The notes under the pieces: generated by a model
Database searches by the model: none
The model's input: the letters and a program-made list of their open reading frames with translations, nothing else
Told to the model about the DNA's origin: nothing
Translations under genes and position numbers: made by a program
Shown: in pieces, positions 5,510 through 44,107 of the stretch
How the letters are laid out: each line of letters opens with the position of its first letter
Position numbering within the stretch: position 1 is the first letter of the stretch
NCBI GenBank assembly: GCA_002787535.1
Contig: PCXB01000013.1
Location: 1 to 47,153 of the forward strand
Direction: 5' to 3'
Source of the DNA: Deltaproteobacteria bacterium CG11_big_fil_rev_8_21_14_0_20_45_16
GTDB taxonomy: Bacteria; Bdellovibrionota; UBA2394
Length of the DNA stretch: 47,153 nucleotides

Positions 5510-6340
5510 TTACTGCGATGGAAAAGTAAACTGAATCGAGGTCCGATCGGGTGGTTGATCGTATACCAAGAAGTAATAACCCAAACCTCCGCCTAAAGCC
5601 ATCCCGCCAAATATTATGGTCCAAAACCACCATCGCTCCCAAAATGGGGTCTTCTCCCCTCCAATGGATATCGTCCCAGCCAGCGACGTAGGATTGAGCT
5701 GCTCTGGAGTTAGAAAAAACTTGGAATCTTCATCTTCAAAGGAAAGGGCATTCTTTTCCTGCTTCGTTTGCAAAAACGAAGGCTTCTCCAAAAAATCTTG
5801 GGGTCCAGGCCGGACAAAACCATCTCGATCCAAGTAATTCATTATCTTAAAACTTAAATCTTCGATCGCCGTCACTCGATTCTTAAGCGCAAAACTCGCC
5901 CGCTCGATTCCACTGTTGGTTTGAATCCTTGAGTCATAAAGCTGTAGCTCCATCTCGATACCTTCAAAAGACTCCTTAAGCATTCCCAATACAATAATAT
6001 CTACTTTGTTATCTACAGCGATCCGATTCAAAAATTCTTGCTGCGCCGGCTCCAAACTTGACTCCGTCGTTCTAAAATATTGATTCCCTGGATTAGAAAG
6101 CATTTTGAAGGATTGAATCTCGGCCTGCCCTGCTAGCCGAGAGTAGCGAGAGAGTGATTTTTGAGTTTGTTTCTTAATAGAATCCTCAACCGAGGCTTCA
6201 ACACTTTCCGTAGCAAAGCCTATCAAAGCTAGTTTTTGAGGCCCTCCCTTGAAGTCCTTGAGACGCTGCTGTGCCATTAGATTCTCGAAATTTGAGAAAA
6301 ATAACAGAGCGCCCGCCAATGTAAGAAGAATTTTTCTCAT
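5510..6340 (-). CDS. Exported protein with C-terminal WWFWT membrane anchor
   Basis: Function not recognised. I use the ATG at 6340 (MRKILLTLAGALLFFS...), which has AGGGAG nine bases upstream; starting further up would overlap the previous gene. Residues 1-24 look like a signal peptide ending near LMAQ. The body (IALIGFATESVEAS, DIIVLGMLKESFEGIEMEL) resembles periplasmic proteins that build a variable ligand-binding fold, but this is weak. Near the C-terminus a membrane helix begins WWFWTIIFGGMALGGGLGYY, leaving a short tail. The gene sits four bases after the gene at 6345-7607, which ends in the same kind of anchor, so they form a pair facing the kinase gene. Confidence 0.7.
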   Translation of the reverse strand: MRKILLTLAGALLFFSNFENLMAQQRLKDFKGGPQKLALIGFATESVEASVEDSIKKQTQKSLSRYSRLAGQAEIQSFKMLSNPGNQYFRTTESSLEPAQQEFLNRIAVDNKVDIIVLGMLKESFEGIEMELQLYDSRIQTNSGIERASFALKNRVTAIEDLSFKIMNYLDRDGFVRPGPQDFLEKPSFLQTKQEKNALSFEDEDSKFFLTPEQLNPTSLAGTISIGGEKTPFWERWWFWTIIFGGMALGGGLGYYFLVYDQPPDRTSIQFTFPSQ

Positions 6341-25817: not shown

Positions 25818-26673
25818 GTGTCTGGGGAGAGGTCGGCAAATTCGTCAAAGAATCTATTTGAGTTTTCTGAGGCTAGAGATTGGCTCGCAGAGGTATTTCG
25901 GCAAAAGAAAATGAAAAACTCCCGCTTTTCTTTGAGAGCCTGGTCCAAACAACTCGGTTTTTCTAGTTCTAATATGTTGTCAATGATTCTTCGCAAAGAG
26001 CGCCGACTCGGCCCTGAAACGGCGCGACGCACGCATAGCGGACGAGATGAAGCTAGGACCTGAGCCGACGCGCTACCTGGAGCTCCTTTGCTCATACAAC
26101 AATGCAAAATCGAGCGAGGAAACTAACTATTTTCTGTATCAACTTGAAGGTCTTCGGCCAAAAAGACTGGAGAGTTTTCTATCATTGGACAAATTTCGAC
26201 TAATTGCTGACTGGTATCATATTGCGATTCTGAAAATGATTAACCTACCCGACTTCCGTAATTCGCCAAATTGGATCTCGCGTAGATTCGATTCAAAAAT
26301 TCCGCCAACGACAATTAAGGCCGCAATCCGCAGGCTGATTCGTCTTGGGATAATCGAGGAAGATGCCCAAGGAAACATAAAGCGAAAAAATGAAAACATA
26401 GATTCGACAACTAATGATTTGCCCAGCCAAGCCATTCGAAAATTTCACAGCCAAATGATTGAAAAGGCCGGCGAAGCTCTAAGGGAGCAGAGTGTCGGAG
26501 AGAGAGAAATTTCGTCGAACACCTTTGCCATTTCCGCCGCGGATTTGCCAAAGGCAAAGAGAATGATTCGAAAGTTTCAGGATGAACTTCAGGCTGTGCT
26601 TAGCCGGGGTAATTCCAATGAAGTTTATCAACTCAATATCCAATTTTTTGCATTAACAAAGGGGGAAAAATGA
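25818..26673 (+). pseudogene. TIGR02147-family gene with a frameshift (4-bp duplication)
   Basis: Two consecutive frames together match the TIGR02147 pattern seen in Bdellovibrio and Fibrobacter. The first, from the GTG at 25818, has FEFSEARDWLAEVFRQKKMK, RFSLRAWSKQLGFSSSNML and RKERRLGPETARR, a helix-turn-helix-like N-terminus. The second continues at DEMKLGPEPTRYLELLCSYN and carries the rest, including SRRFDSKIPPTTIKAAIRRL. They are joined by ACGC repeated at 26027-26030 and 26031-26034. Removing one copy restores a single frame reading ...ETARRIADEMKLGPEP. An ATG near 26047 could start the second part alone. It overlaps the next gene by ATGA, so the two were once coupled. Sequencing error or programmed shift is possible. 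Confidence 0.8.
26027..26034 (+). repeat. Tandem ACGC duplication causing the frameshift
   Basis: The sequence CGACGCACGCATAGC contains ACGC twice in a row. Deleting one copy puts both halves of the TIGR02147-family gene in one reading frame. The direct repeat is the type made by slipped-strand replication. Confidence 0.85.
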
Positions 26674-28310
26674 AAAACCTATTTTTTATATGTTGTATTT
26701 TGCTTGCCAATAGCACTCTGGCGGATCCGCCAGACGATATCCGAGCTTTTAAAGTTGGAAATGGCGGCGACTCCGTGGTTTTGGAGTTTAAGGAGATTTT
26801 ACGAAATGTTTATGCCCAATTAGAGCAGAAATACAAATCTGACGAAGAGTTTATTGAAAATATGACTGTGAAAAGATTTTCCGACATATTGAATGCTCCC
26901 ATCAGAAGTTATGACGAAGTAACCTTAAAGGGTGTAAGCCTAGATGCTGTTAACGACCCTATTTTTGAAAAGGAGATTGCCTTAAGCCGCCCCAGATGGA
27001 ATTCAAGCTCCAATCTGCAGCGCTATCGAATCGTCCTTCATGAAAGCCTACTTTATCTTGGAAACGACGACGTCGAGGGTAGAAATTCAGCAGATATTTT
27101 GAACATGTTGATTGTTGTCCCCTTTCATGCCGATGGCGGTGCAGATAGCGATCAATTTGACAATGATTTGACTAGACCTGAAGGTCGCGGCTTACAAATT
27201 AGCCGTGAGAACGCTCACGAATTTGCACTTCAAGCAGCTGATGCGACGGAAACTTTATGGATGGGCTTTAGCCGTCAGCGTGATTTCTCTGTACAGGCCG
27301 CAAACGGAGCCGTCGGAGCTAAGGAACGAGGATTCTTGAACGACGAATTTCAAGCCTACAAAGAAGAGATGCTACGGATCATTCGAACTTCAAAATTTGA
27401 AGATATGTATACAAATACGCACCATTATATGTTTGATGGCTTTGACTTTAGTGTGCCCATCGAAATGTTCCATGGGCGATACTACTATTTAAAAAATTTC
27501 GACTTTCCGTCTTTAGAGTCAATCGGAAAAGTATATTCTTCGATATTCGAAATTTATCCAATAGAGCCCCTGATGGCTCACTCCTTCGCCATCCGGCAGG
27601 GAGATAAAACTTGGAACTTTGAGCTTGGCAGTAATGATGACCTCGTATCGCCCGACGATCCCGTACATTCTTCGATCTCTATCGCAAGGCGGATAAACGC
27701 CAATAACGGTCTCATATCAGCTCAGGTTTTAGATACTTCGTTTCGAATGGAAAATTTAGATATCGAAAGTTGGAAAAATAAATACGGTGAGCTTTCGGGC
27801 GATGACCTCGTTATCAACGGAGTTAATATCGTAGGGAGTTTGCACAACGCGGAAGACTTTGCTTATCTAATAAATAATTTTTCGAGCCGCACGGGCATCA
27901 AGGCGGAAGTTATATCGGAAGATCCAGACACTATCGAAATATACGCCGAAGATGGTAGAAATATCTCGCTGAAATCCAACACAAATAGTCATTCCGATAA
28001 CTTTGCAACCGTGAGTGGCATTAAAATCGTTCCCGACGAAACTAATATAATTTATGGGAGAGTGGAACTCACATCGTTTCAAGCATTCAACTTAATCGAT
28101 CCAGACGGGCTTTTTGGAAAACTAGATGCAAACTACGAGGTATCGATACCCGAACTTCACAACTATAAAAATAGTACTATAAATACTCAGGAGGGAGCTC
28201 AGGACACTATCACGGTTATGGATCAAGTCCTTCATGACATAAAGGCTTACCAAATCAGTCTAGATATTCTATTGCATTTCTGCCCGAGTCCGACGAAGGA
28301 CCCAGGTTAA
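26670..28310 (+). CDS. Chimeric secreted protein with flagellin-derived domains
   Basis: Residues 1-18 are a Sec-type signal peptide (MKNLFFICCILLANSTLA). Residues 28-135 have the VGNGGDSVV...YRIVLHESLLYLG pattern of a small secreted family common in Bdellovibrionota. From about 175 the protein turns into flagellin: RQRDFSVQAANGAVGAKERG, FLNDEFQAYKEEMLRIIRTS matches the D1 helix region, GELSGDDLVINGVNIV...INNFSSRTGIKAEV is a flagellin IN motif, and TINTQEGAQDTITVMDQVLH with DIKAYQISL is the C-terminal D1 helix. The N-terminal D0 helix is absent and the C-terminal D0 is replaced by a short unrelated end. It probably cannot polymerise by the normal flagellar route. Alternatively it is a decaying recombination product. 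Confidence 0.72.
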   Translation: MKNLFFICCILLANSTLADPPDDIRAFKVGNGGDSVVLEFKEILRNVYAQLEQKYKSDEEFIENMTVKRFSDILNAPIRSYDEVTLKGVSLDAVNDPIFEKEIALSRPRWNSSSNLQRYRIVLHESLLYLGNDDVEGRNSADILNMLIVVPFHADGGADSDQFDNDLTRPEGRGLQISRENAHEFALQAADATETLWMGFSRQRDFSVQAANGAVGAKERGFLNDEFQAYKEEMLRIIRTSKFEDMYTNTHHYMFDGFDFSVPIEMFHGRYYYLKNFDFPSLESIGKVYSSIFEIYPIEPLMAHSFAIRQGDKTWNFELGSNDDLVSPDDPVHSSISIARRINANNGLISAQVLDTSFRMENLDIESWKNKYGELSGDDLVINGVNIVGSLHNAEDFAYLINNFSSRTGIKAEVISEDPDTIEIYAEDGRNISLKSNTNSHSDNFATVSGIKIVPDETNIIYGRVELTSFQAFNLIDPDGLFGKLDANYEVSIPELHNYKNSTINTQEGAQDTITVMDQVLHDIKAYQISLDILLHFCPSPTKDPG

Positions 28311-42223: not shown

Positions 42224-44107
42224 TTAAAAGCTAAGTAGCTGCATGACCGTTTGAAGTTGGACATTGGCTTGTGCATAACTAGCGACCTGAGCATCCGCTA
42301 GAATTTGGTTTCGCAAAAGCTCCGTCACTTCCAAGACTGTATCTGGATCGTTAATCCGGGATTTAGCTTCTTCAAAACTATCACTCATTAAGAGATTTGA
42401 AGCTCCTATGATATCCAACCGGCTATGAACACTGCTTAGCTTAGATTGTTCATCTTCGAGAGCTAAGATTGTATCGTCCAAAATATCGGCCAATTTCGAA
42501 GCCGTCTCCACATCGTTTACATTGAGATCGGCAAGAGCGACGACTTGTTTAGTGTTTGTTAAAATCTTTGTAATATATGACGTGGCGCTAGTGGAGAGTC
42601 CAATAACGTCAGCAACGCCGTCATTGTCAATATCGCCAACAGAAAGATCCGCCACGTTATTAACCAAACTAATGACCTTACTAGCCGTAAAAGTCCCATT
42701 ACCAACACCCTGATAGTATTGTGCCGTATCGCCGGTAGTATCCATGGCAACAAAATCAAGAACCCCATCGCCATTAAAATCCAAAATCTCCAAGTCCGTA
42801 TTCGTCGAGCCAAGCGATAATGCCCCCATTACCCGAGCATCAAAGGTTCCGTCTCCATTTCCGGCATGAAATGAATACTGACCCGTATTGAAATCCAGGT
42901 TCAAGATATCCATCTCCCCATCACGATTGAAATCGGCAACCTGCAATCGATAGGGAAAGTCGCCCGTCGCAAAGGTGCTAAGAGTCTGAAAGGTTCCGTC
43001 GCCGTTGCCTATCTGTATCCCTATTGAATCATCACCAGCATTGGCCTCCACAATATCTGGAATCCCATCATTATCGATGTCAACCATCTGCACATCATAA
43101 ACCAGATTCGAACCCGCCTCATTGGTCTCCGTAAAGCTCAAGGCACCATCGTTCGTAAAAATATCGACTGAGGTTAGAGTTTTATTCGACCCAACAATAT
43201 CCAAATCTCCATCATTGTCTATATCTACAACATCCCCATGAAGCCAGGTCCCACCAGGACTCGCACTCGTAATCGCCGTCTCAAATGTACCATCCCCTTT
43301 TCCAATCAAAATCGAAAACCGTGCGTTTAAGAAAAATGTCACGATATCTTGAATACCATCGTTGTTCATATCCGCGGCAACCATTTCCCGACCAATACTC
43401 GCGCCGGCCTCGGCCCCGCCCCCGTCAATTGTTGTGCTGTGGCCAAAACTACCATCACCGGTACCCATATAGATACTTACATATTCTCCTGCGCCCGCAA
43501 AGTCGTTGATGCCGTCTCCATCGAAGTCCGAGATAACCGACGCCTGGTGACTTGTTGTTCCAAATGTTGTCGTCGCCGATGAAACTCCGCTCCCAACAGT
43601 TTTCAAAAAACTTTTTCCCGCATTGAGATCGGGCAGTTCAAAATTCAAATCATTGCCTTGGTTGGCACCGACTAAAAGGTTTTGCGTTCCCGCTCCGCCG
43701 TCCAGCAAATGTATGTCATTAAATTCTGTGGAAGAGACAATCTCGTTAAACTGGCTTAGGAGTTCTTGCAGTCTCGTATTAATCTCTTGTCGATTGTCCG
43801 CACTAAGACTTGAATTGGCACCCTCAAGCGCAAGGGCCTTCATGGCCTGGACAATATCCATCTGGGCCGAGATCGCATCCTCGGCCGTAGCCAACATGCC
43901 TTGAGCTTTATTCACATTGAAGTTGGCCTGAGTTAGTCCACGAGTTTGCGAATTAAGCCAACTTAAAGAGTGAAATCCGACCAAATCATCACCAGGACTT
44001 AAAATTCGCTGACCACTAGACAGACGCTGAATCGATTTTGAAATCGCTCGTGTTGTCGCGGCCAATCGATTGGCCACTCCCATCTGTGTTGATATATCCA
44101 GTTTCAT
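42224..44107 (-). CDS. Flagellin with a seven-repeat FG-GAP/VCBS propeller insert
   Basis: Residues 1-140 are the flagellin N-terminus: ANRLAATTRAISKSIQRLSS, SGQRILSPGDDLVGFHSLSW and the D1 helix ending STEFNDIHLLDGG. Residues about 525-627 are the C-terminal D1/D0 (ALEDEQSKLSSVHSRLDIIG, QANVQLQTVMQLLSF). In between lie seven copies of D-x-[DN]-x-D-G-x-x-D at about residues 194, 246, 295, 343, 392, 443 and 492, spaced 48-52 residues, each following a sequence like GNGDGTF. This is the FG-GAP/VCBS repeat of integrin-type beta-propellers; seven make a closed ring, with Ca-binding loops. Filament surface display is inferred. The ATG at 44107 has GGAG upstream. No other flagellar gene lies in the window. 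Confidence 0.9.
   Translation of the reverse strand: MKLDISTQMGVANRLAATTRAISKSIQRLSSGQRILSPGDDLVGFHSLSWLNSQTRGLTQANFNVNKAQGMLATAEDAISAQMDIVQAMKALALEGANSSLSADNRQEINTRLQELLSQFNEIVSSTEFNDIHLLDGGAGTQNLLVGANQGNDLNFELPDLNAGKSFLKTVGSGVSSATTTFGTTSHQASVISDFDGDGINDFAGAGEYVSIYMGTGDGSFGHSTTIDGGGAEAGASIGREMVAADMNNDGIQDIVTFFLNARFSILIGKGDGTFETAITSASPGGTWLHGDVVDIDNDGDLDIVGSNKTLTSVDIFTNDGALSFTETNEAGSNLVYDVQMVDIDNDGIPDIVEANAGDDSIGIQIGNGDGTFQTLSTFATGDFPYRLQVADFNRDGEMDILNLDFNTGQYSFHAGNGDGTFDARVMGALSLGSTNTDLEILDFNGDGVLDFVAMDTTGDTAQYYQGVGNGTFTASKVISLVNNVADLSVGDIDNDGVADVIGLSTSATSYITKILTNTKQVVALADLNVNDVETASKLADILDDTILALEDEQSKLSSVHSRLDIIGASNLLMSDSFEEAKSRINDPDTVLEVTELLRNQILADAQVASYAQANVQLQTVMQLLSF

What the first reader, a model, noticed from the sequence alone, without database searches (positions are those of the whole stretch)
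42224..44107. Flagellin whose variable domain is a predicted seven-bladed FG-GAP propeller
The flagellin terminal helices are intact. Between them lie seven D-x-[DN]-x-D-G-x-x-D loops at about residues 194, 246, 295, 343, 392, 443 and 492, an even spacing of 48-52. Integrin-alpha and VCBS propellers use this repeat, and seven blades is the number that closes a ring. The prediction is that each filament subunit displays a calcium-binding propeller, giving thousands of copies on the surface. Possible roles are adhesion to a host or prey, or a calcium-dependent filament change. I do not know of a characterised flagellin of this kind.
Basis: partly seen in the sequence, partly recalled or inferred. 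Interest (0 to 1): 0.85.

Follow-up and report, generated by a model that had tools for sequence, protein, structure and literature searches.

The report
Flagellin carrying a seven-bladed calcium propeller
This bacterium, an uncultured relative of the predator Bdellovibrio, makes flagellar tail subunits whose outward-facing part is predicted to be a calcium-binding, seven-bladed wheel of a type often used for sticking to things; its whole order carries several diverged copies, and we found no description of such a flagellin.

Summary
The gene is on the minus strand (627 aa). Flagellin_N and Flagellin_C are both above Pfam cut-offs, and between them lie seven exact D-x-[DN]-x-D-G-x-x-D loops at the stated residues; 100,000 shuffles never gave more than two. 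An AlphaFold model of the insert (pLDDT 73.5, pTM 0.78) has seven blades and matches solved propellers, but its two ends are low-confidence.

It is not a one-off. The genome has three intact FG-GAP flagellins, one frameshifted copy and one fragment. All five genomes of its order carry them (seven in G001, about a dozen or more in G002), and none was found elsewhere in 369 genomes of the phylum, identified as Bdellovibrionota by a Bdellovibrio 16S primer match. The core tree fits one insertion followed by expansion. Calcium ligands are kept in 16-19 of 19 relatives per blade, while the propellers share only 24-38% identity.

Best reading: a calcium-stabilised outer domain of a mosaic filament, probably for multivalent binding. 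Adhesion, stoichiometry and exposure (Bdellovibrio flagella are sheathed) are untested. It is a new variant of a known kind, domain-inserted flagellins.

The parts
42224..44107 (-). FG-GAP propeller flagellin gene, 627 aa
43694..44080 (-). Flagellin_N, residues 10-138 (D0/D1 N-terminal helices)
   Evidence: PF00669, E 9.8e-24
43559..43594 (-). GSG...T segment, residues 172-183; inferred to supply the closing outer strand of blade 7
   Evidence: G-x-G-x-[FYLIV] turn in 12 of 19 relatives at this point, in 5 of 19 after blade 7 and 16-19 of 19 between blades. The window protein itself is an imperfect case by this pattern (no match here, a weak match after blade 7). Low pLDDT in the model: inference
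42527..43591 (-). Seven-bladed FG-GAP_3 propeller domain, residues 173-527
43502..43528 (-). Ca loop of blade 1 (residues 194-202)
43346..43372 (-). Ca loop of blade 2 (residues 246-254)
43199..43225 (-). Ca loop of blade 3 (residues 295-303)
43055..43081 (-). Ca loop of blade 4 (residues 343-351)
42908..42934 (-). Ca loop of blade 5 (residues 392-400)
42755..42781 (-). Ca loop of blade 6 (residues 443-451)
42608..42634 (-). Ca loop of blade 7 (residues 492-500)
42233..42487 (-). Flagellin_C, residues 541-625 (D1/D0 C-terminal helices)
   Evidence: PF00700, E 7.6e-8

Best explanation
This is a filament flagellin whose hypervariable outer part was replaced by a seven-bladed FG-GAP_3/VCBS beta-propeller. 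The D0/D1 ends (residues 1-165 and 541-627) should pack into the filament core. The chain leaves D1 after residue ~170, gives a strand to blade 7, runs through seven blades, and returns to D1 at ~530. The subunit would be exported unfolded through the flagellar channel and fold at the tip, where external Ca2+ fills one site per blade. Propellers would then stud the filament as its outermost domain. With several diverged paralogues per genome, the filament is probably a mosaic with many binding surfaces. Most likely role: multivalent, Ca-stabilised binding (adhesion to cells, prey, particles or polymers). Shown: domain order, motif conservation, order-wide multi-copy occurrence, predicted fold. 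Inferred: export, assembly, exposure, Ca binding and the binding function. My estimates: anatomy 0.9, assembled into filaments 0.75, binding as main role 0.45.
For: Pfam architecture Flagellin_N + FG-GAP_3 + Flagellin_C, repeated in own-genome genes at C34 and C16 (and a frameshifted copy at C50) and in giant relatives. Strict seven-loop motif; ligand sets complete in 16-19 of 19 family members per blade; propellers 24-38% identical to each other. AF2 of the insert: pLDDT 73.5, pTM 0.78, four strands in each of blades 1-6 plus blade 7. Foldseek top hits include KICSTOR subunits, CRTAC1, BBS1/BBS9 and integrin alphaV beta3, query TM mostly 0.5-0.7. FlhA and flagellins without FG-GAP are in the genome. 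Loops on the inferred top face are more variable (2.8 bits) than the Ca loops and C-D turns (1.0-1.2 bits). Filaments as direct adhesins are known (PMC8306008).
Against: No expression, Ca or binding data. The model used only 8 divergent rows and its ends are below pLDDT 50. No conserved ligand pocket was identified. The top/bottom variability contrast would be expected in many FG-GAP families and is not specific to adhesion. Fast divergence of the outer domain is also seen in the non-propeller flagellins of the same order. Cultured Bdellovibrio and Bacteriovorax have sheathed flagella (PMC7175336); a sheath here would hide the propellers. No sigma-28-like promoter was found above shuffles.
Confidence: 0.5

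Rival explanations
1. Mechanical outer domain: neighbouring propellers pack against each other on the filament surface, with Ca2+ stiffening them, giving a thicker or more rigid filament for swimming in viscous or particulate settings, with no external ligand.
For: Outer domains contribute to filament stability and motility in viscous media in other bacteria (PMC8931119 title/abstract; PMC8306008). A Ca-dependent protein flagellar sheath in the magnetotactic coccus MO-1 boosts thrust (PMC7175107). Giant flagellins make thick filaments (PMC6248924). Calcium ligands are conserved in all seven blades.
Against: Propellers of paralogues share only 24-38% identity, which is hard to reconcile with tight conserved lateral packing. 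The filament very probably mixes several different flagellins.
Confidence: 0.27
2. Surface variation for its own sake: the propeller is a tolerant scaffold whose loops diversify to escape flagellum-binding phages, grazers or other recognition, without a ligand of its own.
For: Propeller divergence is far above core divergence (pairs with 61-70% identical cores have 28-38% identical propellers), and the other outer domains of the order also diverge fast. Expansion to seven copies in G001.
Against: All copies keep seven blades and most of their Ca loops. Simple relaxed constraint gives the same divergence, and no selection test was possible at these distances.
Confidence: 0.13
3. [quoted passage not shown]
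For: Sheathed flagella in Bdellovibrio and Bacteriovorax (PMC7175336; PMC2791853). Some flagellins elsewhere are secreted (Campylobacter FlaC, PMC7643111).
Against: Both D0/D1 ends are intact, and the profile match runs end to end. Sheathed relatives have flagellins of about 275-350 aa with no large outer domain (PMC2791853), so 500-700 aa flagellins in this order suggest an unsheathed filament (inference).
Confidence: 0.1

Closest known systems
Flagellinolysins and other domain-inserted flagellins (Eckhard et al. 2017, PMC5595980)
   Same: A folded domain replaces the flagellin hypervariable region between intact D0/D1 ends; found in many lineages.
   Different: Theirs is a zinc metallopeptidase. 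Their survey found 61 inserted domains; the ten commonest include vWFA and sialidase but not FG-GAP. The full list is in a supplement that could not be read, so FG-GAP may be on it.
FG-GAP_3/VCBS propeller proteins (PF13517)
   Same: Same repeat family, about 50-aa blades, one predicted Ca loop per blade; a seven-blade lipoprotein-like example is in G346 of the same phylum.
   Different: Those are stand-alone secreted or surface proteins, not embedded in flagellin.
Bacterial integrin-type propellers (Chouhan 2011, PMC3192720)
   Same: Seven blades, a Ca site in every blade.
   Different: About 60-aa repeats with a strict FG-GAP/Cage Gly-Pro motif, which is absent here.
Bdellovibrio FliC1-6 (PMC2791853)
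   Same: Same phylum; several flagellins in one filament, in ordered blocks.
   Different: 274-282 aa, no outer domain, sheathed filament.
Giant flagellins (Thomson 2018, PMC6248924)
   Same: Enlarged outer region.
   Different: Their inserts are not described as propellers. Giant FG-GAP versions exist in this order (898 and 1598 aa).

Membership tests
Bacterial flagellin (FliC) | Flagellin_N and Flagellin_C above curated cut-offs in one open frame | tested here: met
   84.4 vs 26.6 bits; 33.0 vs 23 bits
Bacterial flagellin (FliC) | Assembles into the filament | not testable with these tools
   needs filament proteomics or cryo-EM
Bacterial flagellin (FliC) | Distinct from hook-associated FlgL | tested here: met
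   FlgL model 54.8 bits, below its 127.2 cut-off; a separate 315-aa FlgL-like gene lies at G000:C74
FG-GAP_3/VCBS propeller (PF13517) | Repeats above Pfam cut-off | tested here: met
   128.9 vs 26.9 bits, six stretches
FG-GAP_3/VCBS propeller (PF13517) | Predicted seven-bladed propeller | tested here: met
   AF2 pLDDT 73.5, pTM 0.78; Foldseek to solved propellers; ends low-confidence and coordinates not viewed
FG-GAP_3/VCBS propeller (PF13517) | Ca2+ bound in the D-x-D-x-D-G loops | not testable with these tools
   ligand residues conserved; binding not measured
Integrin-type propeller (Chouhan 2011) | FG-GAP/Cage motif with Gly and Pro in every ~60-aa repeat | tested here: not met
   48-52-aa repeats; C-D turn is mostly G-x-G-x-F with no Pro (definition)
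Flagellinolysin | HExxH gluzincin peptidase domain in the hypervariable region | tested here: not met
   No peptidase family match in Pfam

The most novel reading that the evidence does not exclude
An order of Bdellovibrionota has turned its flagellar filament into a mosaic recognition organelle: a clade-specific, expanded repertoire of diverged Ca-dependent propeller flagellins gives one filament many binding specificities, for example for prey, host or particle surfaces.
Probability: 0.25. Interest if true: 0.8.

Novelty: new variant of a known kind. Interest (0 to 1): 0.57.

Why it matters
Flagellin hypervariable regions are known to host inserted domains, but among those named in the papers we could read there is no calcium-type FG-GAP propeller. 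If assembled, the filament would be a long, dense, natural array of a seven-bladed binding scaffold. It would show how a bulky Ca-dependent fold can be exported through the narrow flagellar channel, and a relative of predatory bacteria would be the place to ask whether filaments bind prey or particles. Motif, order-wide multi-copy occurrence and phylogeny make this directly testable.

Tried and rejected
Single-sequence AF2 of the whole protein failed (pLDDT 36). I did not submit loci from whole-genome tools to the structure predictor because its stated rule lists other sources, so the second job used the window insert plus L040 and six viral-contig FG-GAP rows. Viral-contig searches with the window insert, L044, L040 and a flagellin found nothing usable. 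Plasmid tblastn found FG-GAP proteins and flagellins separately, none covering 80% of the query. A sigma-28 promoter scan gave no signal. Gene neighbourhoods show no conserved partner; one locus (C16) shares neighbours with the FG-GAP flagellin loci in G003 (C119) and G002 (C143), which suggests shared ancestry of the locus. PDB sequence search with the insert gave only weak Tc-subunit propeller hits. Rejected: chance repeats; one-off assembly artefact; pseudogene (intact 627-aa frame, conserved ligands).

Full report
OBSERVATION. The gene lies at 42224-44107 on the minus strand and encodes 627 aa. Pfam gives Flagellin_N (10-138), six FG-GAP_3 stretches and Flagellin_C (541-625), all above curated cut-offs. 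None of 100,000 shuffles exceeded two.

FOLD. Folding the whole protein alone failed (pLDDT 36). The insert (residues 160-535) folded with seven distant FG-GAP rows gave pLDDT 73.5 and pTM 0.78, with four strands in each of blades 1-6 and at least two confident strands in blade 7. Foldseek against the PDB puts KICSTOR subunits, CRTAC1, BBS1/BBS9 and integrin alphaV beta3 among the top 50, with query TM mostly 0.5-0.7. These are propeller proteins (established knowledge). The ends (160-185 and 507-535) are below pLDDT 50, so closure of the ring rests on sequence. Every blade should have a G-x-G-x-[F/Y/L/I/V] turn between strands C and D. Family members have it after blades 1-6 (16-19 of 19), rarely after the seventh loop (5 of 19), and in 12 of 19 cases just before the first loop. 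The natural reading is that the N-terminal strand completes blade 7, so that entry and exit lie side by side, as an insertion into the D1 hairpin requires. In the window protein the N-terminal turn reads GSGVSS, an imperfect match to that pattern, so for this protein the closure is an inference from its relatives.

ORGANISM. A known Bdellovibrio 16S primer (GGTAAGACGAGGGATCCT, held in PMC3628794 and PMC7585534) matches exactly in all five genomes tested of genus g41 of the same phylum. The phylum is therefore Bdellovibrionota, and the window genome is a member of an order of which only one family with five genomes is held. Names are not given by the tools, so nothing finer can be said.

DISTRIBUTION. 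The genome (2.44 Mb, 94% complete) has nine Flagellin_N loci. One is FlgL-like (C74). FG-GAP flagellins are at C45 (this one), C34 and C16 (intact); C50 is out of frame near its end, with a stop; C58 holds a C-terminal piece. Three flagellins of about 500 aa lack FG-GAP (C28, C93, C13) and one is minimal (275 aa, C73). The other four genomes also carry FG-GAP flagellins. G001 (20 contigs, 96% complete) has seven, one of them cut by a contig end. G002 has about a dozen or more, several at contig ends. A profile of 19 such proteins searched in 369 genomes of the phylum found end-to-end matches only in this family; elsewhere the flagellin part or the FG-GAP part matches alone. That scan scored three candidates per genome; a scan scoring up to 13 in 97 genomes agrees. 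Flagellin frames listed for the rest of the phylum are mostly 275-350 aa. Across the plasmid collection no record matched 80% of the protein. Other phyla were not surveyed genome-wide.

EVOLUTION. In a tree of the flagellin core, the 25 FG-GAP flagellins of the family form one cluster with one long-branched row (SH-aLRT 99), beside the 500-aa flagellins of the same genomes and apart from the rest of the phylum. This fits one propeller insertion in the order's ancestor and later expansion; a second event is not excluded. Mean pairwise identity is 43% in the cores and 30% in the propellers (24-38%); pairs with 61-70% identical cores have only 28-38% identical propellers. The outer domains of the 500-aa class also diverge fast, so this is not special to propellers. 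Calcium ligands are kept almost everywhere (16-19 of 19 per blade), while the loops on the inferred opposite face vary most (2.8 against 1.0-1.2 bits).

MECHANISM. Shown: domain order, seven conserved Ca-type loops, predicted propeller, multi-copy occurrence. From established knowledge: flagellin ends build the core, the middle faces outward, subunits travel unfolded through the channel. Inferred: this subunit co-assembles with the others, folds outside where Ca2+ is available, and displays propellers. Binding is my preferred role because FG-GAP propellers are common in recognition proteins and filaments are known adhesins (PMC8306008), but a mechanical role or mere surface variation is not excluded.

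EXPOSURE. Bdellovibrio and Bacteriovorax flagella are sheathed (PMC7175336) and the six Bdellovibrio flagellins have 274-282 aa (PMC2791853). Large outer domains in this order hint at an unsheathed filament, but this is inference.

NOVELTY. Domain-inserted flagellins are known (flagellinolysins; 61 inserted domains in one survey, the ten commonest without FG-GAP; PMC5595980). Text searches joining flagellin with FG-GAP, VCBS or propeller terms returned no paper describing such a flagellin. Hence: new variant of a known kind.

Noticed in passing
window 26670-28310 (+): A 546-aa protein with a signal peptide-like start holds a collinear flagellin fragment: residues 202-546 match residues 92-449 of a 504-aa flagellin of the same genome (27% identity, E 1e-31), but both flagellin ends are missing. 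It looks like a flagellin piece recombined into a secreted protein.
   Followed up: partly
L046:4913-6859 (G000:C50): A fourth FG-GAP flagellin is frameshifted after blade 5 with a stop at 6317-6319: pseudogene or sequencing error.
   Followed up: partly
L116:1005-2025 (G000:C58): The C-terminal part of an FG-GAP flagellin is joined to the start of a membrane protein gene; rearrangement or misassembly.
   Followed up: partly
L068:3852-8645 (-) and L073:5900-8593 (+): Giant FG-GAP flagellins of 1598 and 898 aa in related genomes; in L068 about 1000 aa separate two groups of Ca loops.
   Followed up: no
G002 and G001: Up to 18 and 15 Flagellin_N matches per genome (FlgL-like and partial ones included), around the 14-15 flagellin paralogues a 2020 review calls the highest number (PMC7175107). 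G002 is fragmented, so its count is approximate.
   Followed up: partly
L079:6586-8535 (+) (G004): This FG-GAP flagellin has N in place of the third acidic ligand (D-x-N-x-N-G type) in all seven loops, which may alter its metal binding.
   Followed up: no
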